Source: Ascaphus truei (Eukaryota; Chordata; Amphibia; Anura; Ascaphidae). Taken from it: a stretch of 64,000 nt of DNA. Position 1 is the stretch's first letter; each line of letters starts with the position of its first letter. Below, one piece after another: positions 7,800-58,823 of the stretch. The notes under the pieces are model-generated. The model ran no database searches. It was not told where the DNA came from and saw only the letters and a program-made list of their open reading frames with translations. The translations under genes were made by a program, and so were the position numbers. Location of the stretch: positions 227,672,777-227,736,776 of the forward strand of contig CM071568.1 in NCBI GenBank assembly GCA_036426205.1, written 5' to 3'.

Positions 7800-7821
7800 C
7801 GTGTTCGGCTTGTTGGCTTTC

Positions 7822-25973: not shown

Positions 25974-26306
25974 TGCATTGGAGAATCGCAACTAATAATC
26001 TGTAGTCCATTAAATAAAACATGTGTTAGGAGTAAAGCTCTTCTGTAGCATGAATTCACAACAGAATGCATTGTCCAAAAAATGTTATGCACCCCTGACC
26101 CAAGGCAATTAGCTAAAGACCATCGGAAAACTCGAAATATATGCTGTATTTACATACTGTAGTAGATGAGGTTGGAAAAAAAGACACACTGTATGTCCAT
26201 CAAGTTCAACCTACTGTATGTTAAATTTAGATGACAGACACTTTATCCTATATTTGTATTGCATTGGAGAATCGCAACTAATAATCTGTAGTCCATTAAA
26301 TAAAAC
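25974..26306. repeat. 47 bp direct duplication around a CR1-like tail fragment
   Basis: 25974-26020 and 26260-26306 are identical for 47 bp (TGCATTGGAGAATCGCAAC start). Between them 26160-26255 matches the CR1 3' end at 50077-50170 (ATAGTAGATGAGGTTG, CCATCAAGTTCAACCTA). The second copy runs straight into the CTGA-rich satellite. Confidence 0.85.
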
Positions 26307-33108: not shown

Positions 33109-33508
33109 TTTTCCATCTGAGGCAGGTGATTCGGCTGGGTGTCTTTGAGATGGGCATATACAGTATATTGAGATAAAATATATATTTGTTAGAAATAGTA
33201 CGCCATAAAAAATTAATACACATAAAACATATTTTGTGCATATTAAAGGTATTATATATATATATATATTTACACATAAAATGCTTTTTACAATGAGCCA
33301 AAGCTAATTCAATTGTTGACACATATGATTATGACCTGAGGCATGATGAACATTATAAATAAATAGTTGACGTAGGCCTAAAATGTTACAATGTTCTGTA
33401 AATTACCATAAAATTGTGATTTGTAACATACTAACTGCTGGAGACATTGTTATTCAATTAAACAATTGTGTTAAACACAATCATTACTATGTGGTTAATG
33501 CTCCATAC
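33109..33508. other. AT-rich sequence, no gene seen
   Basis: Non-coding up to the target site CATAC (33504-33508) of the Sushi element. Confidence 0.5.
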
Positions 33509-34332
33509 TGTAAGGATCCGCGCCGCGGGTACACCCACTTCCAGCGCCTCCATACCTTGTCTCCGTGCCGCCCAGGCTCCCCGGCGGAGTGCCTCACTCC
33601 TCGCGGCACACCCCACGGTTGCTCCCGCACTTCCGGGGCGCGCGCGTACCCAGGCTTCCATTACTGGTGATGTGCGCCTGACTCCGCCTCTTCAGGTGCT
33701 GCACTCCCAGGCCCTTCTCCCCTATCGGATCCTTCCCCGGGCCGCTCCTCCGCTCCTCCCCTTGCTCTGATAGGCTCCAGCCTCCCAGGCACTTCTCCCT
33801 TATCAGGTCCTCCCTCGGGCCGCTCCTCCGTTCCTCCCCTTCCTCTGATTGGTCGCAGCCCCCTATTTAGTCTCCCCTCACCATTACCACCTTGCTCTGC
33901 ATAGCTTCTGTACCTTGGTGCTGTCTGCTGTTGCCTGGCCCCTTTTGTCTTTCAGTTCCTGTTCCTGTCCCTGAATATTCTGCTGACCTCACTGGATCTT
34001 GACCTTTGACTTTGGACTTCATTACGCTGCTCTCTGGAAACCCTTGGATTTGGCTTTGGACTTTCTACCCTGCAGACTTCTATATCCCCTGGACACGGCT
34101 TACGGACACTCTACTACGCTGCTCTCTCCATCTCACGACCATTGGCTTACGGACTTTACCTTTCTATGATGGAGTTGTCAAGTATGGTACCTTTTCTATT
34201 TTTGTTACCTGGACCACCTACGCTACTTCCACACTCCGGCCGTGCCCCCATTTACTGCTAGGTGTGTGGTATTACTCCTTTCCACCTCAGTCCCGGGGTC
34301 TCGTCTGGCTTGTGGGCAGGCCGAGCGTTACA
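33509..34332 (+). repeat. A1 5' LTR
   Basis: 824 bp, starting TGTAAGGATCCGCGCCGCGG and ending GAGCGTTACA. U3 ends near the TATA-like box at 33864 and R begins at about 33894. The 3' LTR repeats this sequence except for a 28 bp internal inversion (see 45215-45242) and a short tandem duplication near 45565. Confidence 0.92.
33864..33903 (+). promoter_or_regulatory. A1 core promoter and self-primer sequence
   Basis: A TATTTAG box at 33864-33870 lies 30 bases upstream of GCTCTGCATA (33894-33903). That decamer is the exact reverse complement of the primer site at 34334-34343, so it probably marks the first bases of the transcript, as in Tf1. Confidence 0.75.
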
Positions 34333-34333
34333 T

Positions 34334-34343
34334 TATGCAGAGC
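34334..34343 (+). other. A1 primer-binding site overlapping the gag start codon
   Basis: TATGCAGAGC, one base after the 5' LTR, pairs perfectly with GCTCTGCATA at 33894-33903. The ATG at 34335 is the first codon of gag. No match to a tRNA 3' end is apparent. This fits self-priming known in the Tf1/Sushi group. Confidence 0.8.
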
Positions 34344-35000
34344 CCATCAGACCCAGACCCCCCTGAGGTGGAAGATACCCTAACTACCATCTCCAAACAC
34401 TTTACCTTCTTGGACAACCAGGTCACCGCTCTTAACCAACAGGTTGCTACCTTAACCATCCATTAACAGGTTAATGTCTCCAGTTCCGTTATCTCTCCCA
34501 CTGTCTCCCGTGAAGGAACAGGGTCTTCAGAGTGGTGTATCCCTATGCCCAGTAAATACGCGGGGGACCCGCTTGCATGCCGTGGGTTATTAAATCAGTG
34601 CGAGATACAATTCGAACGGTCACCCTCTCGCTTCCCCACGGATCTTACCAAGAGGTAGCTTATGTTTTTTCCCTTCTCACCGGGGACGCCCTGGCCTGGG
34701 CTTCACCAATCTGGGAGCTGAAACCTGAACTTACTTCCCTAACTTTAAAACTTCCCTAACTTTAAAAGAGAATTTCGTTTAGACTTTGACACCCCTGGAC
34801 GTAGTGATATGGCTGCTTCCTCCTTGTTCCACATTTCGCAGGGTCGGAGATCAGTGGCACGTTACGCTCTGGAGTTCCGGACTATCGCGGCTGAGACTGA
34901 TTGGAACGATGGGGCACTTTCCGCCGCTTTCTGGCAGGGACTTTCGAAATCCTTAAAGGACGAGCTGGTGGCTCATGAGAGGCCCTCCTAACTGGAGGCC

Positions 35001-36625
35001 TGTAACAGGGGACTTATCCCTGTTCAGTAATGTGCCTTTAATCTAGCAGTGTGGTAGTTAATTACTCCAGTATGCTGAGGAGAAGCAGCAAACGCTACAG
35101 GAAGAAAAACTGCAGGCTGCTAAAGAGGTACAAGCGCTGCAGGAATGTCTGAATACCCAGTATGTCCCCACAGAGCAGTATGAGGAGCTAAAGGCCACGC
35201 TGCATGTCTTCGGAACATCGTTGGAAGCGGAGCTTCGATACCAGGTGACTCTGTATGAGAGGGAGCGTGAGAAGGCTCAGAAACTGAAGCAGAGACTGTT
35301 CCATTCCCTTGAGTCAGTACACCAAGGAGAAAACAGACGCAGCGGCAACCTTGACGACAAAAATTACAGAGCTCCAGAATATGAAGGAGACTCTGATACA
35401 GATTCCTCCAATACGGAAAAAGGTATTGGCTCTGCCCAAGCACCAGTATCCCACAGTAACTAATGCCCGTAAGGACAAGGGTACAGTGAGAGTTGGGGAC
35501 TCCACGCAACTTCAAAACAAAAGTACGAAGTTTGAGCCACCAAAGAAAGCACTAGCCAAACCTACAGCTGCCCAACAGCAACAAACAGAGGTAGGAGTGC
35601 AGAATCAAAGCCAGAAGAATCCTTAGCTGAAGAAGCTGAACTGGTGACTCCGTGGTGTGGAGAAGCTGCAGAAAGACCACTTCAAGAGCAGAAAACTCTA
35701 CGGGCTAGTCCTAACTGCTCTACAACTGTTGCCATACACTTTGTCTACAAAAAGAGGAGTGCCCGATGCAACAGAAATCTCAAGACCGCGCACGCGATAA
35801 AAAGACTTTACGTGGAAAAAATCCTCCTCGAGCGACTGAGGAGTGCTGATCTCAAGCATCTTCGGGAGGAGACAAAAATAAACTGGAGAAAGGGCTCCAA
35901 TCCCAGCGGGACAGAGGGTTCTCTTCCTCCATCCACTCTCATTCAAGTCACAGAGATATCTAGAATGAGAGTGGAAGGATGGGCTTTGGCCGTGGTAAGC
36001 CCGAGCTTCCCACAAACAGGGGAGGTATGTAACAGGGGACTTATCCCTGTTCAGTAATGTGCCTTTAATCTAGCAGTGTGGTAGTTAATTACTAAATACC
36101 ACCTGCCTGATTAGATTGTTTACAAAAACCTGTCTGTTCAGACAGGAAGTGACTCTCCTTAGCTCTGACTGAGAGCTGACCTTTGGAGAGACAGAGCAGA
36201 GGTTCTTGAGTCCCAGGAGAGACTGACCAAAAGAAACCCAGATCTCTGGAGCTGACCAGTCTTGAGCTCTGCCCAGCAGAGCTGATTTCAAGACACTGGG
36301 AAAACTACTACACCTGAAGCTGAACCAGGAAGTGAGAAGATTTTCCCTCCAAGAAACAGATAAGACTTTTATTCTTAAGAGACTGCTTATATCTGCTTAT
36401 TTCATGTATTATGTTTTGGGCTGCGAGAAATGCTTGACTAAGGGAGATGTGAATTATTGCATAGTGTTTCACTAGAAATACTCCCAAGTGAATAGAAGCT
36501 TCGTTCCCCCCCCCCTGTGTTTGGATGGATTTCCTGATGAAAAGGAAAAGGCACAATAAAGCCTTATTATAATTTCACATTATAAACGTCTCCAAATTGT
36601 GTACATCTGTGAACGTCCGTCTACA
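35001..36625 (+). mobile_element. Element B1: internally deleted copy of the B LTR family
   Basis: A perfect 5 bp target duplication AGGCC (34996-35000 and 36626-36630) flanks it. It starts with the first 66 bp of the B LTR (35001-35066), jumps into the internal coding region (35067-36027) and ends with a full 3' LTR (36028-36625, 598 bp). The rest of the 5' LTR, the primer site and the first two thirds of the ORF are deleted. It is inserted in the gag of A1 in the same orientation. Confidence 0.9.
35067..36057 (+). pseudogene. B-family coiled-coil protein, C-terminal part
   Basis: This corresponds to the last third of the ORF in B2 (41063-42187), with high identity in pieces such as YVPTEQYEELKATLHVF, TKITELQNMKETLIQIPP and GVPNSHC-antiparallel sequence. 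Frameshifts near 35305, 35465 and 35630 break it. The final codons (CNRGLIPVQ) lie in the 3' LTR, as in B2. No retroviral enzyme motif is present. Confidence 0.8.
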
Positions 36626-36899
36626 AGGCCCTAATCGCTTTGTATATCAGGGTCGATCAAAGACTTCTGGAGAGGCGGGCTGAACGTCAACTTCCTCGTA
36701 ATTCTGTTTCCATGTCTTCTAATGCCAGGTCTCCTGCTGTTGTTCTACCAGCATTGGACGCTCCGGAACCCATGCAACTGGGCAGTCATCAACTTCCTTC
36801 TACGGAGCGACTACGTTGGAGAAATGAGGGCCTGTGCTTCTATTGTGGATCTCCTGGCCACATCCTGCCACGTTGTCCCTTGAGGCCGGGAAACGCCAA

Positions 36900-39800
36900 T
36901 GCCCAGTGAGGTATGAGGGAATCTCACTGGGTACCATCTCTTCTTTTCCCTCTCACGCACAGGGTCTTTCCAAACGCATCTTAATGCCTGTCCTCCTTAA
37001 GTACGCCAGCATTCAAACCCCCGCTCTGGCTTTCCTCGATTCTGGATCCGGAGGGAATTTCATAAATCAGGCTTTTGCTATTCAGCACAACATACCACTC
37101 CGGGAGAAGGCCTTTCCGGTTGGATTGGAGGCTATCGATGGTCGACCCCTGCAGCCAGCTTTCATTTCCTTGGAGACACTTCCCATTGAACTTTCTATGA
37201 ATGATGGACATTTAGAACTCATTTCTTTTGATGTCATCCATTCCCCTTCGGTCCAAATCATCCTGGGCTTACCATGGCTGCAACTACACAATCCCATCAT
37301 TGATTGGACTGCCAAGTTCCCCGTTCAATGGAGATCTTCCCAGGTGGAATTGTCTTCTCCGTCCGCTGCGGTATTGGCCGTCTTGGAAACCTTTCCCCCG
37401 CAAGACGCCACCCTACCGGACGTCTATTCGGAGTTCCTGGATGTCTTCAGTAAGACCAAATCCGAAGAGCTTCCCCCTCATCGCCCTTTCGACTGCCCGA
37501 TTGACTTAATTCCGGGTGCTCCTTTTCCCAAAGCCAGGTCATATCCATTATCTTTGCCTGAGACGGAGGCCATGTCCGAGTATATCACAGAAACCCTTCA
37601 AAAAGGCTTCATCCGGAAATCCACTTCTCCCGCCGGAGCATGATTCTTTTTTGTAAAAAAGAAAGATGGGACGCTTCGCCCGTGCATCGATTTCCGTGGC
37701 CTAAACAAGATTACCATCAAGAATCGCTACCCTTTGCCTCTTATCCCGGAGCTTCGATAGGCTGCAAGAAGCGACAATTTTCTCTAAACTTGATCTACGG
37801 GGGGCATATAACCTGATTCGCATCCGCAATGGAGACGAGTGGAAGACCGCGTTCAACACGCGCAGCGTCACTATGAGTACCTGGTGATGCCGTTTGGGTT
37901 GTGCAATGCCCCTACAGTCTTCCAAGACTTTATGAATGAGGTTATTCGTGATCTATTGAATTCTTTTGTGATTATCTACTTGGATGATATCCTCATTTTT
38001 TCCAAAACCCTCGAGGAACACATTCTCCGTACCAAGATGGTGCACTCTCGTTTACGGGCCAACAAGCTCTACGCCAAGATGGAGAAGTGTGTCTTTCACC
38101 AATCCTCAACTACCTTCCTGGGTTACATTGTCTCGGATCAAGGGTTCACCATGGATCCGGAGAAGCTAAATTCTGTACTCGAATGGCCACAACCTAACTC
38201 TTTAAAGGCGATTCAGCGTTTCCTTGGTTTCGCAAATTATTATAGGAAATTTATTGATGGTTTTTCTACCTTGGCACCCATTACGGCCCTTACCAAAAAA
38301 GGGGCCGATCCTTCCTCTTGGCCATTGGAGGACAGCCGGGCCTTTGAGTCTCTTAAAAGAGCTTTTGTCTCGGCTCCCATTCTGTGATATCCCATCCCCA
38401 CCCTCCCCTTTACCTTGGAAGTTGACGCTCCGACGTGGGAGCCGGTGTGGTTCTCTCTCAAAGAACCACCCCCGAAGATAAACTACACACCCTGTGGGTT
38501 TTTTTCTAAAAAAAAATCTTCAGCAGAAAGAAATTACGACGTGGGGAATAGGGAATTGTTGGCCATCAAGATGGCATTACAAGAGTGGAGACATCTTCTG
38601 GAAGGAACCAAGGAACCCATTCTGATCATAATAGACCACAAAAATCTTTCTTACATTAAAGGTGCTCGTCGTCTTGGGCCCCGTCAAGCTCGTTGGGCGT
38701 TGTTCTTCTCAAGGTTTAACTTCATCATCTCTTATATTCCTGGGACAAAGAATATCAAAGCGGATGCATTGTCCCGTCAGTTTATCACTGAGGAGAAGTC
38801 ACCGGAAGTCCCGGAGAGTATTCTGTCCCCCCAATTGTTTATCTCTGCCACCTCCTTTGACATACTGGATAAGATTTTAGAGTCTCAAGCACAGGTCCCC
38901 GAAGGGCTAGAAGTCCCTGATGGTCGTCTTTACGCAGCCCCACGTTTTCATCTCAAAATTCTTGAATGGGGTCACTCCTCCAGATCTGCCGGCCATCGCG
39001 GGTTTAAGAAGACTACTGATCTGATTTGGCGAACCTTCTGGTGGCTCAATTTGTTAAAGGACATTAGAGCTTTCACCGCCTCTTGCCCAGTCTGCGCACA
39101 AAATAAATCTGTGCGTCAAAAGCCTTCCGGTCTTCTACAACCCCTCCCGGTCCCGGACCGTCCTTGGAGTCACATTGCTATGGACTTCATCGTGGATCTT
39201 CCCCTGTCTAATGGTATGACTACTATTCTTGTAATTGTTGACAGATTCTCCAAGCAAGCTCATTTTGTTCCCCTCAAGGGTCTACCCAATTCCAGTACTT
39301 TCGCGGATATTTTTTATAAATAAATTTTCCGTATTCATGGCGTCCCGTGGTGCATTGTCTCGGATCGTGGTACTCAATTTGTTTCTAAATTCTGGCGTGC
39401 ATTTTCCCAGAGGTTGGGCATTACCCTTCTTTTTTACTCAGGCTACCACCCCCAAACTAATGGGCAGACTGAACGCATAAACCAGTCCCTTGAACAGTAT
39501 TTGCGTTGTTTTTCTTCCGATTCTCAGGATAATTGGGCTAAGTTACTTCCTTGGGCAGAATTTGCAATTAACTCTCTCAAGAATGAGTCCACTCAAGAAT
39601 CACCGTTTTTTCTATACTATGGATTTCATCCTACCCGTCTTCCCATGCATTCTTCCAGGTCCGGAGTTCCTGCAGCAGATGATAGGGTATCCACCTTACA
39701 TGGGTCATGGAGGAGGATTCAAACAGTTTTACAGGACTCCGTGCTAAGACAGAAGAGACAAGCAGATAGGCTTCGTCGGGAGGCCCATAAGTTCGCACCT

Positions 39801-40262
39801 GGAGAGAAGGTCTGGCTTTCTTCTAAAAATATCAAACTGAAGGCCCCAACCCCTAAACTGTCTTCCATGTTTCTGGGTCCTTTCTCTATTCTGAGACAAA
39901 TTAATCCTGTGGCCTATCAGCTTCGTTTGCCTCCCTCTATGAAAATTTCACCTGTCTTCCATGTTTCACTCTTGAAACCGTTTATCCAAGGCAAACGATT
40001 CGCTCATCCTTCTCTTCGGCCTCCTCCCCCCATTGTACCAGGACAACAGGAGTTCGAAATCCAGTCCATCATTGACTCTCGCATCTCCAGGGGCAAGCTC
40101 CAATTTTTGGTCCACTGGAAGGGATACGGACCTCAGGATCGTTCTTGGGTCTCGCATGCGGATCTTCACGCCCCGTCTCTACTCAAACGATTCCACAAAA
40201 AATTTCCCCTCAGACCTTGGATGGTTCGTCCGGAGTCCGACCCTCGAGGGGGGGTACTGTAA
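36900..40262 (+). pseudogene. A1 Pol: protease, RT, RNase H, integrase, chromodomain
   Basis: The order of domains is: aspartic protease with FLDSGSGGNF and ILGLPWL (about 37030-37290); RT with [28 protein letters not shown] and the catalytic YLDDILIF (37650-38010); RNase H with [12 protein letters not shown] and DHKNLSY (38540-38660); integrase with an HHCC-like region ending CPVCAQNK, the DFI and SDRGTQFVS motifs and GQTERINQ (38960-39490); and a C-terminal chromodomain, ILDSR-like with FLVHWKGYGPQDRSWV (about 40050-40150). The stop TAA lies in the 3' LTR. Defects: TGA at 37641, two compensating shifts (about 37757 and 37868), TGA at 38385, TAA at 39321. Confidence 0.93.
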
Positions 40263-40522
40263 GGATCCGCGCCGCGGGTACACCCGTTTCCTGCGCCTCC
40301 TTACCTTGTCTCTGTGCCACCCAGGCTCCCTGGCGGCGTGCCTCACTCCTCGCGGCACCCCCAACGGCTGCTCCCGCACTTCCGGGGCGCGCGCGGACCC
40401 AGGCTTCCATTTACTGCGCCGTGCGCCTGACTCCACCTCCTCAGGTGCTGTGCGCACATCACACACTTCCCTGCCCCTGCTCCATCAGGCCTGCCTCCCA
40501 GGCCCTTCCTCCCTATCAGATC
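40258..40522 (+). repeat. A1 3' LTR, first part
   Basis: It starts TGTAAGGATCCG after the purine-rich tract GAGGGGGGGTAC (PPT, about 40245-40257). It is interrupted by B2 at the target AGATC (40518-40522, repeated at 45169-45173). Confidence 0.9.
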
Positions 40523-41092
40523 TGTGGACGGACGTTCACAGAGGTACACAATTAGGAGGCTTTATAATGTGAAATTATAATAGGCTTTATTGTGCCTGTT
40601 CCTTTTTATCAGGAAAATTATCCAAACACAGGGGGGGGAACAAAGCTTCCATTCACTTGGGAGTAATTCTAGTGAAAACACTATGCAACCAATTCACATC
40701 TCCCTAGTCAAGCATTTCTCCCCAGCCCCAAACATAGCATGAAAATAAGCAGATATAAGCAGTCTCTTAATAATGAAAGTCGTATCTGTTTATCAGCTGT
40801 AGAGTAGGCTTCTCTGCTCTCCTGGAACCGCACGGAGCGTGCACAGAAAATCAGCATCCAGGTTTAGAAGTCTTATTTGGGCCTTGTGTCTTGAAAGCAG
40901 CTCTGCTAACTTTTGGCAGCGCTCAAAACAAGTGTGTCTCTAAGTTCAGCTCAGGTGTCAGCTAAAGAGTTCTCACTTCCTGTTTCAAAAGACAGGCTTT
41001 CTAAGCCATCTAATTCAGGCAGGTGGTGTTTAGTAATTAACTACAAGAGGATTAAAGACACATTACTGAACAGGGATAAGTCCCCTGTTACA
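40523..41092 (-). repeat. B2 3' LTR
   Basis: 570 bp. On plus it reads TGTGGACGGACGTTCACAG ... CCCTGTTACA. It contains an AATAAAG signal on the minus strand near 40590 and shares the GGATAAGTCCCC hairpin-like start with the other copies. Confidence 0.92.
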
Positions 41093-43717
41093 TACCTCCC
41101 CTGTTTGTGGGAAGCTCGGGCTTACCACGGCCAAAGCCCATCCTTCCACTCTCATTCGAGATCTTTCTGTGACTTGAATGAGAGTGGATGGAGGAAGAGA
41201 ACCTTCTGTCCCGCTGGGATTGGAGCCCTTTCTCCAGTTTATTTTTGTCTCCTCCCGAAGGTGCTTGAGATCAGCACACCTAAGTCGCTCGAGGAGGACT
41301 TTTTCCACGTAAAGTCTTCTCATTGCTTGCGCGGTCTTGAGATTTCTGTTGCGTCGGGCACTCCTCTTTTTGTAGACAAAGTGTATGGCAACAGTTGTAG
41401 AGCAGTTAGGACTAGCCCTTGGAGTTTTCTGCTCTTGAAGCGGTCTTTCTGCAGCTTCTCCACACCACGGAGTCACCAGTTCAGCTTCTTCAGCTAAGGA
41501 TTCTGCACTCCTACCTCTGTTTGTTGCCTGTTGGGCAGCTGTAGGTTTGGCTAGTGCTTTCTTTGGTGGCTCAAACTTCGTATTTTTGTTTTGAAGTTGC
41601 GTGGAGTCCCCAACTCTCACTGTACCCTTGTCCTCACGGGCATTAGTTACTGTGGGATACTGGTGCTTGGGCAGTGCCAATACCTTTTTCCGTATTGGAG
41701 GAATCTGTATCAGAGTCTCCTTCATATTCTGGAGCTCTGTAATTTTTGTTGTCAAGGTTGCCGCTGCGTCTGTTTTCTCCTTGGTGTACTGACTCAAGGG
41801 AATGGAACAGTCTCTCTGTTTCTCCAGCTCTTGCTCCAGTTTCTGGGCCTTCTCACGCTGCCTCTCATACAGAGTCACCTGGTATCGAAGCTCCGCCTCC
41901 AATGATGCTCTGAAGACATGCAGCGTGGCTTTTAGCTCCTCATACTGCTCTGTGGGGACGTACTGGGTATTCAGACATTCCTGCAGCGCTTGTACCTCTT
42001 TAGCAGCCTGCAGCTTTTCTTCCTGCAGCGTTTGCTGCTTCTCCTCAGCATACTGGAGGTGTGTACGCAGACCTTGCAGTTGGTTCTGCAGTCGGTGCTC
42101 TGCTTCAAACATTTCCTCTTTCAAAAGTTTATTTATTTCTTTAAGAGCCTGCAGCTCTTCATTCTTTCCCTTGACGTATTCTGTCAACTCAGAATTTTCT
42201 TTTTTTAATCTTAAATTTTATCTTTTTTCAGTCTCTGTACTATTCAGGGCTTCCTTGCAGTCCACCTTCCATTTTTGCACATCTGCTTGGAGGCGGGCTG
42301 TCTCCTGGCGTGAGACTTCCATCTCCAGGTTTAAGTTCTGAAGCTCCTTCTGAGAGACTTTGAGATCTAAGTTAAGATGTAGGGTAGTTTTCCTTGAAAT
42401 GTCCAGCTCCTCAGTGAGACTGTGTAGTTCCTTTCTGGAAACTTCCAGGTCTGTGCGGCAGCTGTTGGTCTCATGATGTGAGGCATCAAGTGCTCTGCGG
42501 AGTGTCTGAACCTCTTTCTGAGATACGTCCACTTCTATCCGGACACTGTTGATCTCCTGTTGTGAGGCATTCAGCTCTATGCGAAGAGTGTGAACCTCTT
42601 GCTGGAAGACTGTCATCTGCTTCAGTGCCTCCTCATACTTCCGCTTTAGCGTAGCCACCATTTTATCAGATTGGCTCTGCTTTTCATCCATGGTGGAAAT
42701 AGTAGCCTTTGCAGTATCTAGCTCAGTCTTGAGAACGTCCAATTCTGTCCTGGCTAAAGAGTAAATTGTGAGCACATCTTTTTGTAGCCTCACGTTATTT
42801 TTCAGTAGCTCCGCGTAACCATCTTTCTTTTGATTCAATTGTTCACGGAGTAAATCACAGTCACGCCTGGCAATTTTCAGGGCGTCTTCAGGGCTGGTCA
42901 AGGGATCGTCACTCACTGGTTCTGGCTCCGCTTCCCTGGGATGACTGGTTGAGGGTTCCTCACTGTTGGCACCGGACAGACACTTCTTTGGGGTACACGA
43001 CTTCTGCCTTGGGCCCTCTGGATATTCAGTTATACGTGGGACGAATTCTCCATTTTCTCTAGCCTGCAGGGCATCTCGGTCCCCCTTTTTATCCACAGGA
43101 TCTGCAGACCTGTCTGTTACTTCCACGGTAAGTGAAGAACCGCTTTTCTTTTTCTTCCTTTTTGATTTGGATGACACCGTCCCTTCAGGGATACTGGGGT
43201 CTCCATCTTCATTTGAAGTTTTAGCAGCGTCACTGGATCCACCCGGCTTTTCTTGCAACTGTAATAGCTGACGGAAATATTCGGTGATCCACTGCTCCCG
43301 CTCTGTCTCCTGCTGATCATATTCGTCATCAAAGGGAGCGGTCTTTTCTGTTCGTGCCGAGTTCAGGCACCCCCACCATTCTTGGGGTGTTTTGTGGGTG
43401 TGACTTGGTTCGGGTTCCTCGTAAAAGATGTCTTCCTCTTTATTGGACTGGAAGGGCCACTCTTCAGTGGGTTAGGGTTCATTACAGGAACGCTGCATCT
43501 TGTCCTCCATTTTTAGGCTATCAGGTGTCATTTTCTTTCTGACCTCAGGAGGCGCTATTGCAGCTGTTGCCACTGTATTTGCTAGAAACTCCAATTGTGA
43601 TAGTCCTAAAGATGGGCATATTTTGCTTGTAGAGGTCGTGGCTCTCACAGGCATCTCTGTAGATTTTATTTTCTTGGGTAATTTTTTTTTTTTTTCAATA
43701 TCAGCAGTACTGTGCAT
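41063..43717 (-). pseudogene. B2 coiled-coil protein, about 885 codons with two in-frame stops
   Basis: One continuous minus frame from ATG 43717 to TGA/TAA at 41063, interrupted only by TAA near 43473 and TAA near 42215; the sequence on both sides stays in frame. Regions in order: basic N-terminus (MHSTADIEKKKKLPKK); acidic/Trp-containing segment (EEDIFYEEPEPSH, QEWWGCLNSA); Lys/Ser-rich linker (KSKRKKKKSG); then about 450 residues of heptad-rich coiled coil with repeated V-SQ-E---LR phrases; then YVPTEQYEELKATL and SIPLSQYTKEKTD; then a basic C-terminus. The last ten codons lie in the 3' LTR. The YVP-EELK-L and IPLS wording recalls the coiled coils of UACA or RAI14, but this is only a resemblance. 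It could be a captured host sequence or an unusual Gag-like protein. Confidence 0.75.
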
Positions 43718-44559
43718 GCATTTTCTCTTATCAGGTATACAAGATTGTGCAGTTGCTAGGTAAAAAAAAGTCTATTTGCTATACACCATTTATTTGCTAG
43801 GTGAAATCCCTCCGCTTCAGCAACAGAATTTGGTTTTCTGCCTGAGTTCAGTAATTTTCAGTATCATCTTTGGGTATTATGGCATTCACACTTCACACTT
43901 TGGGTGTCTGTTTTGCTCCCAAGATAATAGGCATACTTTTTTACTTGCAGAAAAAAAAACATTCTTTGCAGTGGACTCAACACTCAGCAATTGGCTTTGA
44001 AAAAACTTTTTCTTTATAGGGCAATTTTACACTCAGCATTTGTTTGCTAAAAATACCCCTGCTCAGCACAGTCTTTGTATCAATTTTCACACTTTTCTGC
44101 ATATACTCCATTCACAGCTGGTAGCCCTATGCGGTGTGGCAACCTTTATTTGCAAAATCAATACCACTCGTGGGTCACCATCTGTTTTCACTGCTTCAGC
44201 GAAACTTTTGAAAACAAGAAAAACCTATCCCTTTTTATGGGCTGACTCACTTCTTGAACCCTGACTATGGCTAGAAGGCAAAATCCCTATTTCAATGACC
44301 GTATTACACTTTGTGATAGGTAATTAAAGATTTACCTGCTTCAGCAGTCTCTTGGGATTGGGGAAAAGAGTCGTCTGTGGTTTTGTAAGTTTCAGTGCAG
44401 TGTAAGTTTCAGTGGTGTGTGTCCCTTTAAATCTGATCTCTGCTGCATGAGGGTTTTTTTTTGTTTTTTTCAAGTTGTTTAGACTGTTTGTAGGCAATAA
44501 GCATAACAAAAAATTTCACATAAAAACTCTGGTCCTTTTTAACTACAAGGACACCTCTT
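43718..44559 (-). other. B2 leader, no coding seen
   Basis: About 840 bp between primer site and ORF, rich in repeated TTTGCTAGG and CACTCAGCA-like phrases on plus. No frame with known motifs. It may hold packaging or translation signals. Confidence 0.5.
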
Positions 44560-44577
44560 ATCCCACTTCTCACACCA
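44560..44577 (-). other. B2 primer-binding site, tRNA-Leu-like
   Basis: The minus strand reads TGGTGTGAGAAGTGGGAT starting two bases after the 5' LTR. It matches the complement of the 3' end of vertebrate tRNA-Leu, as recalled for ERV-L-type elements, at 17 of 18 positions. Confidence 0.7.
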
Positions 44578-44579
44578 TA

Positions 44580-45168
44580 TGTGGACGGACGTTTACAGAG
44601 GTACACAATTAGGAGGCTTTATAATGTGAAATTATAATAGGCTTTATTGTGCCTGTTCCTTTTTATCAGGAAAATTATCCAAACACAGGGGGGGGAACAA
44701 AGCTTCCATTCACTTGGGAGTAATTCTAGTGAAAACACTATGCAACCAATTCACATCTCCCTAGTCAAGCATTTCTCCCCAGCCCCATACATAGCATGAA
44801 AATAAGCAGATATAAGCAGTCTCTTAATAATGAAAGTCTTATCTGTTTATCAGCTGTAGAGTAAGCTTCTCTGCTCTCCTGGAACTGCACGGAGCGTGCA
44901 CAGAAAATCAGCATCCAGGTTTAGAAGTCTTATTTGGGCCTTGTGTCTTGAAAGCAGCTCTGCTAACTTTTGGCAGAGCTCAAAACAAGTGTGTCTCTAA
45001 GTTCAGCTCAGGTGTCAGCTAAAGAGTTCTCACTTCCTGTTTCAAAAGACAGGCTTTCTAAGCCATCTAATTCAGGCAGGTGGTGTTTAATAATTAACTA
45101 CAAGAGGTTAACCATCACACTGCTGGATTAAAGACACATTACTGAACAGGGATAAGTCCCCTGTTACA
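44580..45168 (-). repeat. B2 5' LTR
   Basis: 589 bp, almost identical to 40523-41092 apart from 19 bp (TTAACCATCACACTGCTGG region) present only here. Confidence 0.92.
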
Positions 45169-45173
45169 AGATC

Positions 45174-45825
45174 CTTCCCCGGGCCGCTCCTCCACTCCTC
45201 CCCTTGCTCTGATAGGGGAGAAGTGCCTGGGAGGCTGGAGCCTATCAGGTCCTCCCTCGGGCAGCTTCTCCGTTCCTCCCCTTCCTCTGATTGGTCCCAG
45301 CCCCCTATTTAGTCTCCCCTCACCATTACCACCTTGCTCTGCATAGCTTCTGTACCTTGGTGCTGTCTGCTGTTGCCTGGCCCCTTTTGTCTTTCAGTTC
45401 CTGTTCCTGTGCCTGGATATTCTGCTGACCTCACTGAATCTTGACCTTTGGCTTTGGACTTCATTACGCTGCTCTCTGGATCCCCTTGGATTTGGCTTTG
45501 GACTTTCTACCCTGCAGACTTCTATATCCCCTGGACATGGCTTACGGACACTCTACTATGCTGCTCTCTCCACTCCACGACCCAGGCTTACGGACACTCT
45601 ACTACGCTGCTCTCTCCATCCCACGACCATTGGCTTACGGACTTTACCTTTCTACGCTGGAGTTGTCAAGTACAGTACGGTACCTTTTCTATTTTTGTTA
45701 CCTGGACCACCTACGCTACTTCCACACTCCGGCCGTGCCCCCATTTACTGCTAGGTGTGTGGTATTACTCCTTTCCACCTCAGTCCCGGGGTCTCGTCTG
45801 GCATGTGGGCAGGCAGAGCGTTACA
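45174..45825 (+). repeat. A1 3' LTR, second part
   Basis: It continues CTTCCCCGGGCCGC after B2 and ends GAGCGTTACA. It holds the same TATA-like box and GCTCTGCATA as the 5' LTR, a 28 bp inverted segment (45215-45242) and an extra tandem copy of a CTTACGGACACTCTACTA phrase near 45540-45605. Confidence 0.9.
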
Positions 45826-50911: not shown

Positions 50912-51308
50912 GCCTGTGTGAGGATTCGGAGGTCATGATGGCCGCAGCGTGACCTCCCCTCACCTCTTGTTGCGCCCGCTGCTGCAGGGCGTCCCCCTCG
51001 CCGGTCCCGTCCGGTCCCCGTGGTTGAGGGACTCCCTCCTCGTCCCGGCGGGCGGCCGCTGTTCTGCAGGCGGCTGGGGCTATGGCGGCCGCTGCTGCTC
51101 ATGGGCACGCACTCCCCCTTGTTACGGAGCGCGCGCCAGATCAAGTTAATTTATTCACTGCTCCTGCAGTGAGGCCTCGCCCCAACTCACACACAGCCTA
51201 CAATCATGCCCTAAAAGTGCTCACCTGCATTCTTCTCTAGGCAGCCTATCCAGGACAGCTCCATGCACTCCTCCAGGTCTGCCTCCTCTTCCTATTCGCC
51301 AGCCGCAC

Positions 51309-51349
51309 TATATAATGCCTGTCTTGCCATTCCCACATCGCTCGACATA
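51309..51349 (+). promoter_or_regulatory. A2 core promoter and self-primer sequence
   Basis: TATATAA (51309-51315) is 31 bases upstream of GCTCGACATA (51340-51349), which is the exact reverse complement of TATGTCGAGC at the primer site 52207-52216. The 3' LTR version differs by one base (ACTCGACATA). Confidence 0.78.
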
Positions 51350-51640
51350 GTCTCTCCTTATGGGTGTCTAGTCTGGCTCTCTCCTTTGTCTTCGTTTATT
51401 CAGGTGACGGCCCGGCTTGGCGTACTTCACTCTGTGGCTCCGGACCCCGGCTCCCACTTGACCTTACTGCTTCTCTCGCCCCTCGACCTCAGCTTGGACC
51501 CCTAACCTCTGGACCTCTCCTCTCCCTGACCATGGCTAACGGCAATGACTACGTCTCTTCTTGTACCGGTAAGTATTGCTTCAGCTATTACCACCTGGCC
51601 TGGCAACGCCAAACCACCACACTCCGGACACACTGCGGGT

Positions 51641-52130
51641 AAACAGAAATAAACTGTGCGCTACTATCTATCTCCTTATTATAATTGAATACAGTGCAGT
51701 GACTAAACCATATATAAATAAAGTAAACCACAATACCACAGTGAATAAGTGATTAGATAATTAAATTATAACATAACCGTGTGGTTGATATGGGCGTCTG
51801 CTGCTATAAACATTAGGGGTGGCTCAGCACCCCACACACTAAGAAATGGAAACAAAAAGAAAACAGCGCACAACGCCAAATAGTGAAGTAAGTAATAGAA
51901 TGTATTACAATATTAAAGGGGTAATAAATCTGCGTACATCAGATAGAAATAACATGTGCATTTAGTGCATATCACACTGGTTACCACTCTGTAGCTGTAA
52001 AACAGGACGGTCTGGCACTCAGCTGTCTCTGCAGGAGCCTCTATGATGGTTCTGGGGCATGGGATCCTTCATGCACTCCTCACACAGCAGGACGCTGCTC
52101 ACAAGGGGATTCCTTTCAAGCAGCCTTCAA
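51641..52130. mobile_element. 490 bp insertion in the A2 5' LTR
   Basis: Absent from the 3' LTR and flanked by a 6 bp direct repeat GCGGGT (51635-51640, 52131-52136). It contains AAAAAGAAAACAGCGCAC near 51855, similar to the repeat end at 13500, so a Penelope-like or related retroposon fragment is likely. No coding sequence. Confidence 0.65.
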
Positions 52131-52206
52131 GCGGGTGCATGCACATATACGTCCCCACCTCAGTATAAGGGACGGGTCTGGTCTGAGGGCAGCACTGGCG
52201 TAATAT

Positions 52207-52216
52207 TATGTCGAGC
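52207..52216 (+). other. A2 primer-binding site overlapping the gag start codon
   Basis: TATGTCGAGC, one base after the 5' LTR, contains the gag ATG (52208) and pairs over 10 of 10 bases with the LTR sequence at 51340-51349. The sequence differs from A1 while the pairing is kept. Confidence 0.82.
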
Positions 52217-53142
52217 CCACAAGACGCAGACCAGACTGATCCGGCTTCTATGATGATGGCCATGTATCAACAAATCCAGGCCTTAACAGATCAGATGGCT
52301 CTCCTCTCTCAACAGGTACAGGCCCTGTCATTTCAGGCACCACCTGTGGCCGCACCGCGGGCACAGGCAGAACCGGTATCCGCCGCGACCCCATGCCCGA
52401 AGATTCCGGCACCTAAGCAGGGGATCCGCACGCCTGTCGTGGTTTTGTCAATCAATGCGAGATGCAGTTTGAGATGGCCCCGCAGCAATATTACACTGGT
52501 CGTAAGAAGGTGGCATATGTTTACAGCCTACTCACAGGCAATGCGCTGGCATGGGCCTCTCCGATTTGGGAACTACGTCCCGAAATCAACCGAGATTAAA
52601 CAGCCTTTAGACGAGACTTTCGACAGGTATTCGATACCCCTGCACGCCAAGAAACTGCCTCTGACTCTTTGCTTCAGCTTTCACAGGGATGACGGTCCGT
52701 GACCCAGTTCACCTTGGAGTTCAGGACCATTGCAGCTGAGACACGATGGGACCAGGAGGCCTTAGTCTCAGTCTTCTGGCGAGGCTTATCGGATTTTGTG
52801 AAGGACGAACTCGCCTCACAACACAGGCCAGGACTTCTGGAGGAACTCATCTCCCAAGCCATTCGAGTGGATCTGCGTCTTCAGGTACGCCTCGCTCAGC
52901 GCCAGCACCCACGATTTATGCCCTTCCGTGCCCCTATTCCCAGGTTCTCTTCATCCACCGGACCTGTCTCCTCCCCACTGCCCGCTCTGGAGGCTCCGGA
53001 GCCAATGCAACTAGGAGTCCAGCATCCTCGGGCACCGATACGACAATTTCGCCAAGCCGGTGGGTTATGTTACTACTGCGGATCTTCTGAACATCTGGTC
53101 CGCGAATGTCCACTACGTCCGGGAAACGAGCAGGCCCAGTGA
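52208..53142 (+). pseudogene. A2 Gag
   Basis: It starts MSSPQDADQTDP, followed by a short coiled coil (YQQIQALTDQMALLSQQVQA), a Pro/Ala-rich linker, a capsid region with frame changes near 52440 and 52690 (LEFRTIAAETRWDQEALVSV and FVKDELASQHRPGLLEELIS), and one CCHC knuckle CYYCGSSEHLVREC before the stop at 53142. It shapes the particle and binds the element RNA. Frameshifts disable it. Pol overlaps in the -1 frame, as in A1. Confidence 0.9.
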
Positions 53143-53646
53143 GTACGAAGGGGCTCTCCGTGGGTGCTAAATCTCCTTGTCCCCTTTCCAGGAAGGAACT
53201 TCCCAAAAAGTTGACCATTCCCGTCTCCCTCTCTGGTCCCACCTTCCGCACCTCCACAGTGGCATTTATCGATTCCAGGACAGGAGGAAATTTCGTGGAC
53301 CAGACCTTCTCTGAACAGAACCAGATTCCACTCATTAGGAAGACATCTCCCATTGCCTTGGTCGGGATCGACGGTCATCCGCTCACCCCGGCATACATCT
53401 CCTTGGAGACTTGCCCCCTCACCCTTTCTTCTCATTCCCACAAGGAGACCCTGGCCTTTGATGTTATCCATGCTCCTGGAACACCAGTCATCCTTGGCTT
53501 ACCTTGGTTGCAGAAGCACAATCCGCACATCAATTGGATTTCCCAAGATCCCATTGTCTGGAGGTCAAGGTCAGAGGAATCTTCCCCACCAGCTGTACTT
53601 CCACCTCAACTGCTGGCTAATACATCCAACCCTAAGGGAGAGTTAC

Positions 53647-54539
53647 TGTAACGCCTGTATGCCTGCAGACCTGGCCAGTCCCCAGTACTGAGGTGGGTAA
53701 GGGTATAACACGCACCCACAGCAGTGAGGGCGTGCCCGGAGTGTGGTAATGCGTTGCCGGGCCTGGTAAGAAAGGGTTAACGTATACTTGCTGAGTCCGG
53801 TGTGCCAGAGGTCGGAGAGTAATGTCCGTGTGCCAGAGTTCAAGGGTTGGAGAGGACAGCGTAGTGATGTCCGTAAACCAGAGTTCAAGGGTTGGAGAAG
53901 GCAGCGTAGTGATGGCCGTAAGCCAGGGTTCAAGGGCAGGAGAAGGCAGAGTAGTCAAATCCAAAGCAGTGTTCAAGTTCAAACCAAGGGAATCCAAACA
54001 GGGGCAGGGACAGGAACTAGCGCTGAAACAGACAAGGGAGTTAGGCATAGACACTGCACACACATGAGCTACAGGAAAGCTATGCAGAGCAATGACTAAG
54101 AGGACAGAGTGGGGTTATAAAGGAAGGGGGACCAATAGGGATGAGAGGTGGAGCAGAGGCTTGAGTGAGTGTTTGCAGGGATAGGTCTGAGAGAGCAGGG
54201 GAGGAGACAGGGAAATAATCCAGAGAGATGGCTTGTAAGCCACGGGGGGCGGCAAATAACTGGAGCGGGTGCGCGTGCTTTCTGTAAGTGTGTTATGCGC
54301 GTGCACCGCGCGTGTCACAGGGCGCAAAGGGCGCTCCGCCAGGGATACGCTCGACACCAGAGGCGGAAGGAGAGGCGGAGGAGCCAGGTAATGCAAGGGC
54401 TGGGGTGATAGAGGCACGCCGAGGAATACGGGTACCACGGAGGGTAGCGAGTGACCAGGAAAGTGCGCGCACGTTAGGAGTCGTGGGAACTGAGGTGACG
54501 GGGACACGCTGGGAAGCGTGAGTCCCCCGGACCGTTACA
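53647..54539 (-). mobile_element. Sushi-type solo LTR (A3) in A2 pol
   Basis: Perfect 5 bp duplication GTTAC (53642-53646, 54540-54544). Ends TGTAACG and CGTTACA. On the minus strand a TTTATAA box (54121-54115) lies about 29 bases upstream of GCTCTGCATA (54090-54081), the same start decamer as in A1, which sets the orientation and the family type. Three units of about 50 bp (CAGAGTTCAAGGGTTGGAGA) lie at 53815-53960. It separates protease from RT. Confidence 0.88.
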
Positions 54540-55086
54540 GTTACCCACCCCGTACGCAGATTTTCTGGATGTCTTCAGCAAGACTCAATCCGAGCTACTA
54601 CCCCCTCACAGATCTTACGATTGTCCGATAGACTTGGTACCCATATACACATTGCCCAAATCCAAATCCTATCCCCTCTCTCTGCCTGAGACGGAGGCCA
54701 TGGATGAATACATTCGCGAGAACTTGAAGCGGGGCTTTATACGGCATCCCAATTCTCCCGCGGGGGCTGGATTCTTTTTCGTTAAGAAAAAAGACGGTAC
54801 TCTCAGACCGTGTATAGACTACCGGGGTCTGAACCGCATTACGGTGAAGAACCGTTACCCACTCCCACTCATCTCTGAACTCTTCGACAGACTTCAGGGT
54901 GCTAACCTGTTTTCCAAGCTAGACTTTCGCGGGGCATATAATCTCATTCGCATCCGGGAGGGCGACGAATGGAAGACCGCCTTCAACACCCATAGCGGCC
55001 ACTAAGAATATCTCGTGATGCCCTTCGGCTTATGCAATGCCCCGGCGGTCTTTCAGGACTTTATCAACGACATCTTTCGAGATGTC

Positions 55087-55752
55087 TGTGGACGGACGTT
55101 CACAGAGGTACGCAATTAGGAGGCTTTATAATGTGAAATTATAATAAGGCTTTATTATGCCTTTTCCTTTTTATCAGGAAAACATCCAAACAAGGGGGGG
55201 GGAACAAAGCTTCCGTTCACTTGGGAGTATTTCTAGTGAAAACACTATGCAATCAATTCACATCTCCCTAGTCAAGCATTTCTCCCCAGCCCCAAACATA
55301 GCATGCAATAAGCAGATATAAGCAGTCTCTTAAGAATAAAAGTCTTATCTGTTTGTAAGCTTCTCTGCTCTCCTGGATCCGCACCCATGCGTGCACAGAA
55401 AATATCAGCATCCAGGTTTTAGAAGTCTTATTTGGTCCTTGTGGTTTGGAGGGAAAATCTTTACTGTCCCTGCTTCAGCTTCCTTGTCTTCAGGGATTGT
55501 CAGCATACAGGTTTAGAAGTTTTCCCTGTGTCTTGAAAGCAGCTCTGCTATCTTTTGGCAGAGCTCAAGGCAAGTGTGTCTCCAAGTTCAGCTCAGGTGT
55601 CAGCTAAAGAGTTCTCACTTCCTGTTTCAAAAGACAGGCTTTGTAAGCCATCTAATCAGGCAGGTGGTGTTTAGTAATTAACTACCAGAGGTTAACCACC
55701 ACACTGCTGGATTAAAGGCACATTACTGAACAGGGATAAGTCCCCTGTTACA
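55087..55752 (-). mobile_element. B-family solo LTR (B3) in A2 RT
   Basis: Perfect 5 bp duplication ATGTC (55082-55086, 55753-55757). 666 bp, same ends as B2 (TGTGGACGGACG ... CCCTGTTACA), with about 80 bp more in the middle (55440-55530). It cuts the RT just before the catalytic YLDD box. A solo LTR implies a full element that was lost by LTR recombination. Confidence 0.92.
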
Positions 55753-58028
55753 ATGTCCTTAACCGTTTTGTAATTGTTTATCTGGACGACATTCTTATTT
55801 TTTCCAAGAATCTACAGGATCATATCATCCATATGAAGTTTGTGCTCTCCCGCCTCCGAGAGAACCACTTGTTTGCCAAGATGGAGAAGTGCCTTTTTCA
55901 CCATTCTACCACCTCCTTTCTTGGGTAAATTATTTCCAACAGGGGATTGGCCATGGACTCAGAGAAACTCAAAGCCGTAGTGGATTGGCCGCAACCCGAT
56001 TCCCTCGTCTATTCAGCGGTTTCTTGGGTTTTCCAATTATTACCGGAAATTTATTCGTAACTTTTCCACCATCATCGGTCCGATCACGGCTCTGACCCAA
56101 AAAGGAGCTGATCCTTCGTCTTGGTCACCTGAGGCAGTCACGGCTTTCAAAGCGTTGAAACAAGCATTTGTCTCTGCTCCCATCCTCCGACACCCGAACA
56201 TCAATTTTTCATTCACCCTAGAGGTAGATGCTTTGGACTGCGGGGCCGGCACAGTCCTATCCCAGAGATTTTCTCCCCAGGATAAACTTCACCCTTGCGG
56301 TTTCTTCTCTAAGAAGTTTTCTCCAGCTGAGAGGAACTATGACGTGGGCAATAGGGAACTTTTGGCCGTCAAGTTGGCCCTTCATGAATAGAGGCATCTT
56401 CTGGAGGGGTCAAAAGAGCCGTTCACAATTCTCACGGACCATAAAAATCTTTTATACATCGAGAATGCATGCCGCTTAGGCCCCTGCCAAACTCGCTGGT
56501 CGTTATTTTTCTCCAGGTTTAATTTTATCTTGTCTTACATTCCCAGCACCAAGAACATCAAGGCGGATGCCCTCTCTAGACAATATTCTTCTGAAGAGAG
56601 ACCGGAAAAAACCACCGAGTCCATCCTTCCCAAGGAAAAGATCCTCGCGGTCGCTGCTTTCAAGAATCTGGAAATGATCATCAAATCTCAAAAACATTTT
56701 CCTAGGGATCTCAAGTTACCGAAGGACACCTTGTACGTGGAGCCCAAGTTCATTCCCGAGATTCTGGATTGGGGATATGCTTCCCGTTCGGCAGGACATC
56801 CGGGATACAAAAAAACTTTGGACCTCATCCGTCGCACCATCTGGTGGCCCAATATGGCCAAGTCCATCCTTGAATTTACTCAGCCTGTCCGGTATGTGCA
56901 CGCAATAAGATTCCTCGTCAGAGACCCCATGGTCTTCTTTTGCCTTTACCCATCCCGGAGCGCCCCATGTCCCACATATCCAAGGACTTTATTGTCGAAT
57001 TGCCTAGGTCGAATGGCATGAACACCATTCTAGTAGTGGTGGATCGGTTTTCCAAGATGGCACATTTTGTTCCTCTCAAAGGATTACCCTCCTCACTTTT
57101 CTGGATCCATGGCATTCCAACATCCATCGTATCGGACAGAGGCTCCCAATTTGTTTCCAGATTCTGGAGGACCTTCACCGGAAGACTGGGTATTTCTTCC
57201 TCCTTTTCCTCAGGATATCACCCTCAATCCAATGGGCAGACAGAGAGGGTTAATCAATCTCTCGAGAAGTACTTGAGGTGTTTAATCTCAGACTCCCAGG
57301 ACGACTGGTCGGAATGACTCCCCTGGGCTGAGTATGCCTTTAATTCCTCCAGGAATGAATCCACTCGTGAGACACCTTTCTTTATTAATTACAAATTCCA
57401 CCCGGCTCACCTGCCCATTTACAATATCTCCTCTGGAGTATCAGCCATGAATGAACACATCTCCCGCTTACAGGACTCTTGGGCTAGAATTCAATCGGCA
57501 CTCCAAAAGGTCTCCCAGACTTCAAAACTCCAGGCTGACCATCGTCGCCGACCTGCACCCAACTACAAGCCAGGGGATAAGGTTTGGTTGTCTACCAAAA
57601 ACATCCACCTAAAGGCCCCTTCCCCTAAATTGGCACCTATTTTTCTGGGCCCATTTACCATCATGGAGCAGGTAAACCCGGTGGCCTTCCGCCTTCAGTT
57701 ACCCCAAAGCATGAGAATTCCTAATGTTTTTTACTCATCACTTCTCAAGCCGTTCATCTCCAGTCCCCTCTTTCCGGACCACACTCTTAAACCAGATCCA
57801 GTGATCATACAGGGCAACGAAGAGTACGAGGTCCAAGCTATACTGGACTCCCGTCTCTCGAGGGGTAAGGTTCAGTTCTTGGTCCATTGGAAGGGCTTTG
57901 GACCTGAAGAAAGGTCTTGGGTACCTCTCAAAGACATTCACACACCAGGACTTCTTAAACGCTTCGGTAAGAAGTTCCCATCCAAACCGTGGGAGGATCG
58001 TCCTGAGGCCGACCCTGAAGGGGGGTAC

Positions 58029-58823
58029 TGTGAGGATTCGGGGGTCACGACGGCCCCAGCGTGACATCCCCTCACCTCTTGTTGCGCCCGCTGCTGCAGG
58101 GCGTCCCCCTCGCTGGTCCCGTCCGGTCCCCAGTGCTTGAGGGACTCCCTCCTCGCCCCCGGCGGGCGGCCGCTCTTCCGCATGGGGCTGGGGCTATGGC
58201 GGCCGCTGCTGCTCATGGGTGCGCGCTCCCCCTCATTATGGAGCGCGCGCCGGATCAAGTTAATTTAATCACTACTCCTGCAGTGAGGCCACACCCCCAA
58301 CTCACACACAGCCTAAAATCATGCCCTAAAATTGCTCATCTGCATTCTTCTCAAGGCAGCCTATCCAGGACAGCTCCATGCACTCCTCCAGGTCTGCCTC
58401 CTCTTCCTATTCACCAGCCGCACTATATAATGCCTGTCTTGCCATCACTCGACATAGTCTCTCCTTACGGGTGTCTAGTCTGGCTCTCTCCTTTGTCTTC
58501 GTTTATTCAGGCGACGGCCCGGCTTGGCGTACTTCACTCTCTGGCTCCGGACCCCGGCTCCCACTTGACCTTGCTGCTTCTCTTGCCCCTCGACCTCAGC
58601 TTGGACCCCTAACCTCTGCTCTCCCTGACCATGGCTAACGGCAATGACTACGTCTCTTCTTGCACCGGTACCGGCAAGTATTGCTTCAGCTATTACCACC
58701 TGGCCTGGCAACGCCAAACCACCACACTCCGGATACACTCCTTCTGCTGCGGGTGCGTGCACATATACGTCCCCACCTCAGTATAAGGGACGGGTCTGGT
58801 CTGCGGGCAGCACCGGTGTAACA
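58029..58823 (+). repeat. A2 3' LTR
   Basis: 795 bp, starting TGTGAGGATTCGGGG after the purine tract GAAGGGGGGTAC and ending GGTGTAACA. It holds TATATAA near 58427 and ACTCGACATA near 58447. Close to the 5' LTR apart from small indels. Confidence 0.92.

What the first reader, a model, noticed from the sequence alone, without database searches (positions are those of the whole stretch)
40523..45168. LTR element with no polymerase, carrying an 885-codon coiled-coil ORF
Element B2 has all the marks of reverse-transcribed insertion: LTRs, a tRNA-Leu-like primer site two bases from the 5' LTR, a purine tract and a 5 bp target duplication. Yet its interior holds a single frame for a charged coiled-coil protein and no protease, RT, RNase H or integrase motif. 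The ORF ends inside the 3' LTR in both B1 and B2, so it is an integral part of the element. The two LTRs are nearly identical, so the family moved recently. The protein may be a captured host coiled coil (wording recalls UACA/RAI14) or a novel structural protein; the autonomous partner is unknown.
Basis: partly seen in the sequence, partly recalled or inferred. Interest (0 to 1): 0.88.

Follow-up and report, generated by a model that had tools for sequence, protein, structure and literature searches.

The report
Jumping elements carrying captured frog genes
In the tailed frog, an LTR mobile element with no polymerase carries a long coiled-coil gene partly derived from the frog's own UACA gene, and a sister family fuses in pieces of other host genes, so these elements look like repeat collectors of host genes.

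Summary
B2 is real: a minus-strand LTR element at 40523-45168 with target duplication GATCT, a Leu-like primer site, purine tract, near-identical LTRs and no protease, RT, RNase H or integrase signal. One frame (43717 to 41063) spans much of the interior, but B2's copy has two in-frame TAA stops, so it is broken. The host is Ascaphus truei. Of 20 ten-kb loci fetched around LTR hits, 8 carry the same leader and/or ORF; chromovirus and L1 pol queries hit nothing inside the element stretches seen. The UACA hunch holds: residues 39-150 of the ORF's C piece are 59% identical to Ascaphus UACA (E 4e-32; reversed control E 0.18). A second LTR family (C), with unrelated LTRs, carries a homologous ORF, open for 901 codons in L030, that also holds a lamin A/C segment (E 8e-19). 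A database protein with the same N-terminus and tail has a TULP3 tubby domain instead (E 1.6e-110). Three open C ORFs show dN/dS 0.41-0.58 against 0.80-0.98 in shifted frames. Best reading: non-autonomous LTR retrotransposons whose only gene is a selected, host-derived chimera, moved by a partner's enzymes. Partner, protein function and host exon structure are not shown.

The parts
44580..45168 (-). 5' LTR of B2 (TG..CA, 589 bp)
40523..41092 (-). 3' LTR of B2 (570 bp), K2P 0.012 to the 5' LTR
40518..40522 (-). target duplication GATCT, 3' side
45169..45173 (-). target duplication GATCT, 5' side
44560..44577 (-). primer-binding-site-like TGGTGTGAGAAGTGGGAT, two bases from the 5' LTR; varies among copies. 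The tRNA-Leu assignment is recalled, not tested
43718..44579 (-). leader, no pol-like frame found; present in whole or part in 8 of 20 fetched loci
43475..43717 (-). ORF piece 1 (81 codons from ATG, MHST..), ended by TAA
42221..43471 (-). ORF piece 2 (417 codons, charged region and coiled coil), ended by TAA
41066..42217 (-). ORF piece 3 (384 codons); stop at 41063-41065 lies inside the 3' LTR
41768..42103 (-). UACA-derived segment, 59% identical to Ascaphus UACA 770-888
41093..41104 (-). polypurine tract ACAGGGGAGGTA
35001..36625 (+). B1: deleted copy (about 60 bp of 5' LTR, C-terminal part of the ORF, 3' LTR), TSD AGGCC read by eye, inside chromovirus A1
55085..55765 (-). B3: single LTR of the family inside chromovirus A2; duplication not checked

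Best explanation
B2 is a broken copy of a non-autonomous LTR retrotransposon family whose only gene is a coiled-coil protein built partly from host UACA. Shown: LTR anatomy, 5-bp duplications, repeated copies with the same ORF and no pol found, UACA homology, a sister LTR family (C) with a homologous open ORF that adds a lamin A/C segment, a TULP3-bearing variant in the protein database, and purifying selection on the C ORF (three sequences). Inferred: host mRNAs were co-packaged and joined to element RNA by template switching during reverse transcription; the ORF moved between two unrelated LTR frames in the same way; reverse transcriptase and integrase come in trans from another element, probably Ty3-like; and the protein serves the element, most likely as a self-assembling, RNA-associating Gag substitute (long coiled coil plus lysine/arginine-rich tracts).
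For: Host is Ascaphus truei (the record's contig of 306,271,277 bases equals C2). LTR search: 41 matches, 40 of 3517 candidates scored. 20 sites fetched at 10 kb: 8 with leader and/or ORF, 12 with LTRs only, L013 among these also holding a C element. Exact 5-bp duplications at 12 of 12 complete single LTRs (truncated L019 left out) and at 4 of 5 copies with both ends readable, the fifth (L020) matching at 4 of 5 bases. UACA: 59% over 119 columns, E 4e-32; reversed-sequence controls best E 0.18 and 0.36; the matched protein aligns over its whole length to a rodent UACA. C element L030: LTRs with K2P 0.020, TSD GGTGT, one ORF of 901 codons; lamin A/C match E 7.9e-19; UACA match E 1e-48. P0011: N-terminus 94% identical to P0010 over 328 residues, then TULP3 E 1.6e-110, then the same tail. 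C-type ORF search: 105 matches, 94 of 14982 candidates scored. dN/dS 0.48, 0.41, 0.58 for the three pairs of L030, L031, L032; shifted-frame controls 0.80-0.98; UACA-like part 0.22 and 0.24 in the two pairs with L030.
Against: UACA explains only about 110 residues of B2; the rest has no match outside Ascaphus in searches capped at about 8000 candidates. No partner element was found, and only the best-scoring copies were looked at; four of the eight copies with interior (L014, L017, L025, L026) are not seen to both ends in their loci. Host UACA, LMNA and TULP3 exons could not be compared with the element because the genome search did not complete. The lamin-like part is under weak constraint (dN/dS 0.87 and 0.61), and the TULP3 chimera was not seen in its genomic LTR setting. 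The primer site matches one tRNA poorly in half of the readable copies. Models have low overall confidence and show helices but no capsid fold, so the Gag role is not shown. Most fetched B copies have interrupted frames, so the selection result rests on C.
Confidence: 0.75

Rival explanations
1. The coiled-coil protein is an ordinary but fast-evolving Gag, as in the zebrafish gag-only Bik elements, and the UACA likeness is coiled-coil convergence.
For: Bik-1 and Bik-2 are non-autonomous LTR elements with one Gag ORF and no pol; Bik-1 Gag has an N-terminal coiled coil (passages). L020 has a Cys/His-rich N-terminal stretch.
Against: UACA identity is 59% over 119 columns with reversed controls at E 0.18 or worse. 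Ascaphus UACA is closer (59%) than mouse UACA (35%). Lamin or TULP3 segments follow the UACA part in homologous ORFs. No capsid fold in the low-confidence models and no Gag family in Pfam.
Confidence: 0.1
2. Passenger reading: the captured host pieces do nothing for the element; LTRs, primer site and packaging signal suffice and the ORF is neutral cargo.
For: B2's own ORF is broken and the fetched B copies examined have interrupted frames. The lamin-like part has dN/dS 0.87 and 0.61.
Against: C-type frames of 916, 922 and 666 codons stay open and show dN/dS 0.41-0.58 with controls at 0.80-0.98.
Confidence: 0.2
3. The element is an internally deleted form of an autonomous family that still exists, and the ORF is that family's accessory gene.
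For: The 3' ends read to my eye like Ty3-type pol tails (..RGKPELPTNRGGM and ..EEPGGSSGERSWEGGV, compare A1 ..PESDPRGGVL).
Against: No pol inside the B or C stretches seen in 24 loci, with A1 chromovirus pol and one L1 RT as queries.
Confidence: 0.15

Closest known systems
Maize Bs1 (passages of a review seen, PMC13317346)
   Same: LTR element with segments of three host genes, giving rise to a chimeric gene
   Different: Here in a vertebrate, in two unrelated LTR families, with different host genes (UACA plus lamin A/C, UACA plus TULP3) and frames open for about 900 codons in some copies
Zebrafish Bik-1 and Bik-2/crestin (passages seen, PMC10996621)
   Same: Non-autonomous LTR families with a single ORF and no pol, recent activity; coiled coil in Bik-1 Gag
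   Different: Their ORF is a Gag with a capsid domain; here no capsid fold is seen and host-gene segments are recognisable
Crocodilian ERVs with KIT-ligand or nectin3 (passages seen, PMC4299795)
   Same: Host mRNA captured by vertebrate LTR elements; the authors report purifying selection
   Different: There KIT-ligand was added without loss of an ERV domain and nectin3 replaces env; here no gag or pol is found and the host-derived ORF stands alone
Ty3-type chromoviruses A1 and A2 in the window
   Same: The tail next to the purine tract looks alike; B copies sit inside them
   Different: A1 has RT, RNase H, integrase and chromo matches and a protease match just under its cut-off; A2 has RNase H, integrase and chromo matches. 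No Leu-like site is seen after A1's 5' LTR (by eye)

Membership tests
LTR retrotransposon | Two like LTRs with TG..CA ends | tested here: met
LTR retrotransposon | Target-site duplication of fixed length | tested here: met
   5 bp, exact at 12 of 12 complete single LTRs and at 4 of 5 copies with both ends readable
LTR retrotransposon | tRNA primer site and purine tract | tested here: inconclusive
   Both sequences in place; the primer site varies among copies, the match to tRNA-Leu is recalled, and no tRNA gene was compared
Autonomous Ty3 or retroviral element | Protease, RT, RNase H, integrase | tested here: not met
   positive control
Gag-only ERV (Bik type) | Capsid (CA) fold in the ORF | tested here: inconclusive
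   Low-confidence AlphaFold models show helices only; no Gag family in Pfam
Host-gene-capturing LTR element (Bs1 type) | Segment homologous to a host gene inside the LTRs | tested here: met
   UACA in B2 and L030, lamin A/C in L030
Host-gene-capturing LTR element (Bs1 type) | Segment lacks the host gene's introns | not tested
   The genome search with P0012 and P0011 did not complete (and later)

The most novel reading that the evidence does not exclude
A vertebrate lineage of LTR elements has replaced Gag with a chimeric protein assembled from host cytoskeletal and ciliary genes (UACA coil, lamin A/C rod, TULP3 tubby domain). The cargo is exchanged while the N-terminus and tail are kept, and the ORF passes between unrelated LTR backbones, so that the element is a working exon-shuffling machine under selection.
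Probability: 0.3. Interest if true: 0.92.

Novelty: new variant of a known kind. Interest (0 to 1): 0.8.

Why it matters
Capture of host genes by LTR elements is documented from a few cases. A multi-copy vertebrate family with long open chimeric ORFs, at least two cargo versions and a selection signal would let one ask directly how such captures arise, whether a host coiled coil can stand in for Gag, and whether the products feed back as new genes. Public records already list several of these ORFs as uncharacterised Ascaphus proteins (LOC142475018, LOC142476626, LOC142493741, LOC142503956).

Tried and rejected
RAI14: not in the hit lists of three protein searches, but those score only about 8000 candidates and limit length, so it is not excluded. 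RNA genes: no Rfam match at gathering score and no tRNA in the window. Solved structures: none for the B2 C piece, P0007 or P0006 at the thresholds used. SMC, ATG16, CENP-F, spidroin and myosin matches are generic helix hits, the family ones far below curated cut-offs; they were dropped. A 22-base B/C leader match (E 4e-7) is A-rich and was not used. The precomputed Pfam label PF24161 is shared by UACA and B proteins but also by a myosin, so it was not used. No fold search was run: the models are low-confidence coils. dN/dS of B2 against C is saturated and was not used. Papers: one search listed one paper, not opened; one search listed two, of which passages of PMC12822217 were seen; listings only for apart from the three papers cited by passages; a search for UACA, retrotransposon, amphibian, TULP3 and LTR (at least 4 of 5) found none. 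Those searches of one open-licence library are the whole basis for 'not met in print'.
Full report
Check of the observation. The window lies in an assembly of 2.82 Gb. A protein record named for Ascaphus truei sits on a contig of 306,271,277 bases, the length of the window's contig C2, so the host is the tailed frog. B2 is on the minus strand. Its LTRs are 45168-44580 and 41092-40523, with TGTAACAGG..CCACA ends, 7 substitutions in 570 aligned sites plus 19 gap columns (K2P 0.012) and GATCT on both sides. It lies in the 3' LTR of a chromovirus (A1), whose LTR copies match at 33506-34332 and at 40255-40450 plus 45170-45825. B1 is a deleted copy inside A1 (35001-36625, TSD AGGCC read by eye), and B3 is a single LTR inside a second chromovirus, A2 (its duplication was not checked).

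The ORF. The minus frame from 43717 to 41063 is the only very long one, but it holds two TAA codons in B2. Between B1 and B2 a 17-base and a 1-base deletion add up to 18, and a 15-base difference also keeps the frame. Pfam finds no retroviral domain in 12 submitted frames of the element (two overlapping) of 35 listed. Frames of A1 match RT, RNase H, integrase zinc and chromo models, those of A2 RNase H, integrase and chromo. So the lack of pol is real at this sensitivity.

The family. The best 40 of 3517 candidate LTR places were scored. I fetched 20 sites as 10-kb loci. Eight (L010, L012, L014, L015, L017, L020, L025, L026) hold the B leader and/or ORF; twelve hold LTRs only, L013 among them also holding a C element. 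All 12 complete single LTRs have exact 5-bp duplications; L019, truncated, is left out. Of five copies with both ends readable (window, L010, L012, L015, L020) four are exact and one matches at 4 of 5 bases. LTR pairs in six loci (window, L010, L012, L013, L015, L020) have K2P 0.012, 0.016, 0.030, 0.012, 0.114 and 0.026; the L013 pair may not bound one element. The primer site is not constant: 4 of 8 readable copies have TGGTCGTCAG. tblastn with A1 pol pieces and one L1 RT over 24 loci hit chromovirus or L1 pieces, none inside a B or C stretch bounded by what was seen; in L010 the B element splits a chromovirus pol, and in L025, whose 3' LTR was not found, an L1 piece lies 3.3 kb past the last B match. 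Other pol types were not used as queries.

UACA. Protein searches with the B2 N piece and with P0006 returned only Ascaphus records, 6 of 6 and 4 of 4, among about 8000 scored candidates each. L013 showed a second family, C: an ORF about 75% identical to B at DNA level over 280 bases, between LTRs of a different sequence (TGTCATATTC..GTGACA). An open C element, L030, has LTRs 1233-1794 and 4688-5249, TSD GGTGT and one open frame of 916 codons, 901 from its first ATG. That protein (P0009, residues 300-840) found seven records at E 10 or better: Ascaphus P0010, P0011 and UACA (P0012, E 3e-34), three rodent UACA records (3e-7, 1e-3, 2.5e-3) and one pheasant myosin at E 2.9, not significant. P0012 aligns from end to end with a rodent UACA (38%). 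B2's C piece matches P0012 770-888 at 59%, E 4e-32, against 35% to mouse UACA. Reversed sequences reach only E 0.18 and 0.36. The segment is therefore nearer to frog UACA than to mouse UACA.

More host pieces. Against the PDB, P0009 630-752 matches lamin A/C chains (best E 7.9e-19); three myosins also appear, at E 2.6e-5 to 3e-3, as generic coiled coils. P0011 keeps the C-type N-terminus (94% to P0010 over 328 residues), then carries TULP3 chain residues 152-402 (E 1.6e-110), then the C tail ..EYPLPTDKPPEVGHLESPFHQGLREEPGGSSGERS. The database counts 19 member sequences for P0011. I did not see P0011 in its genomic setting. B and C LTRs share no significant similarity (best E 3.3), yet their ORFs are homologous (P0007 405-662 against P0009 300-591, E 1e-30), so the ORF has moved between LTR backbones or was taken up from one source twice (inference).

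Selection and abundance. A search with a 450-residue C piece gave 105 matches from 94 scored of 14982 candidates; nine loci list an open frame of 800 or more with no stop in the match. The three fetched (L030, L031, L032) have open frames of 916, 922 and 666 codons. Their dN/dS values are 0.48, 0.41 and 0.58 (L030/L031, L030/L032, L031/L032), with 0.80-0.98 in shifted frames. In the two pairs with L030 the N-terminal part gives 0.37 and 0.41, the UACA-like part 0.22 and 0.24, the lamin-like part 0.87 and 0.61, the tail 0.57 and 0.52. Three sequences are few, and the lamin part is hardly constrained. B2 against C is saturated (dS about 2) and not used. No such test was made on B copies.

How it probably works. 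Shown: an LTR element with the cis parts expected for reverse transcription, no enzymes found, and one partly host-derived ORF kept open by selection in the C branch. Inferred: RT and integrase in trans; capture by template switching between co-packaged RNAs, as the Bs1 review and the crocodilian paper describe in general (passages); a Gag-like assembly role for the coil. AlphaFold gives a long helix (P0007 277-484, pLDDT mostly 80-96) within a model of mean pLDDT 59, which fits a coiled coil and does not show a capsid.

Place among known things. Bs1 is the nearest in kind, Bik the nearest in layout, and crocodilian ERVs the nearest vertebrate captures that I saw. The combination seen here (vertebrate, no gag or pol found, two LTR backbones, at least two cargo versions, selection) was not met in the papers searched, a limited, open-licence library. 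I rate it a new variant of a known kind.

Noticed in passing
33506-45825 and 50917-58618: Two chromoviruses (Ty3 type, with chromodomain). All three B copies of the window, and the one in L010, lie inside chromoviruses. After A1's 5' LTR no tRNA primer site is seen by eye.
   Followed up: partly
L013:5134-7563: B LTR, 619 bases of target flank, purine tract, B LTR, then the same flank again: may be a join of a solo-LTR allele and a full-length allele in the assembly.
   Followed up: partly
L020:3334-4941 (-): This copy replaces about 316 leader bases by about 157 others that extend the ORF with MAAQLKSNTDSAKMGKKMCSWCKEPHHTEQCPF, a Cys/His pattern resembling a zinc knuckle (label recalled).
   Followed up: no
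L032: Shorter C-type ORF (666 codons) lacking part of the N-terminal coil and part of the lamin-like segment; its LTR is about 78% identical to that of L030.
   Followed up: partly
5115-8661 (-): Interrupted L1-like non-LTR element (endonuclease and RT frames; label recalled).
   Followed up: no
9827-10432 (-): Tc1/mariner-like transposase frame (label recalled).
   Followed up: no
26283-28368: Large tandem arrays, mostly with 25-base spacing.
   Followed up: no
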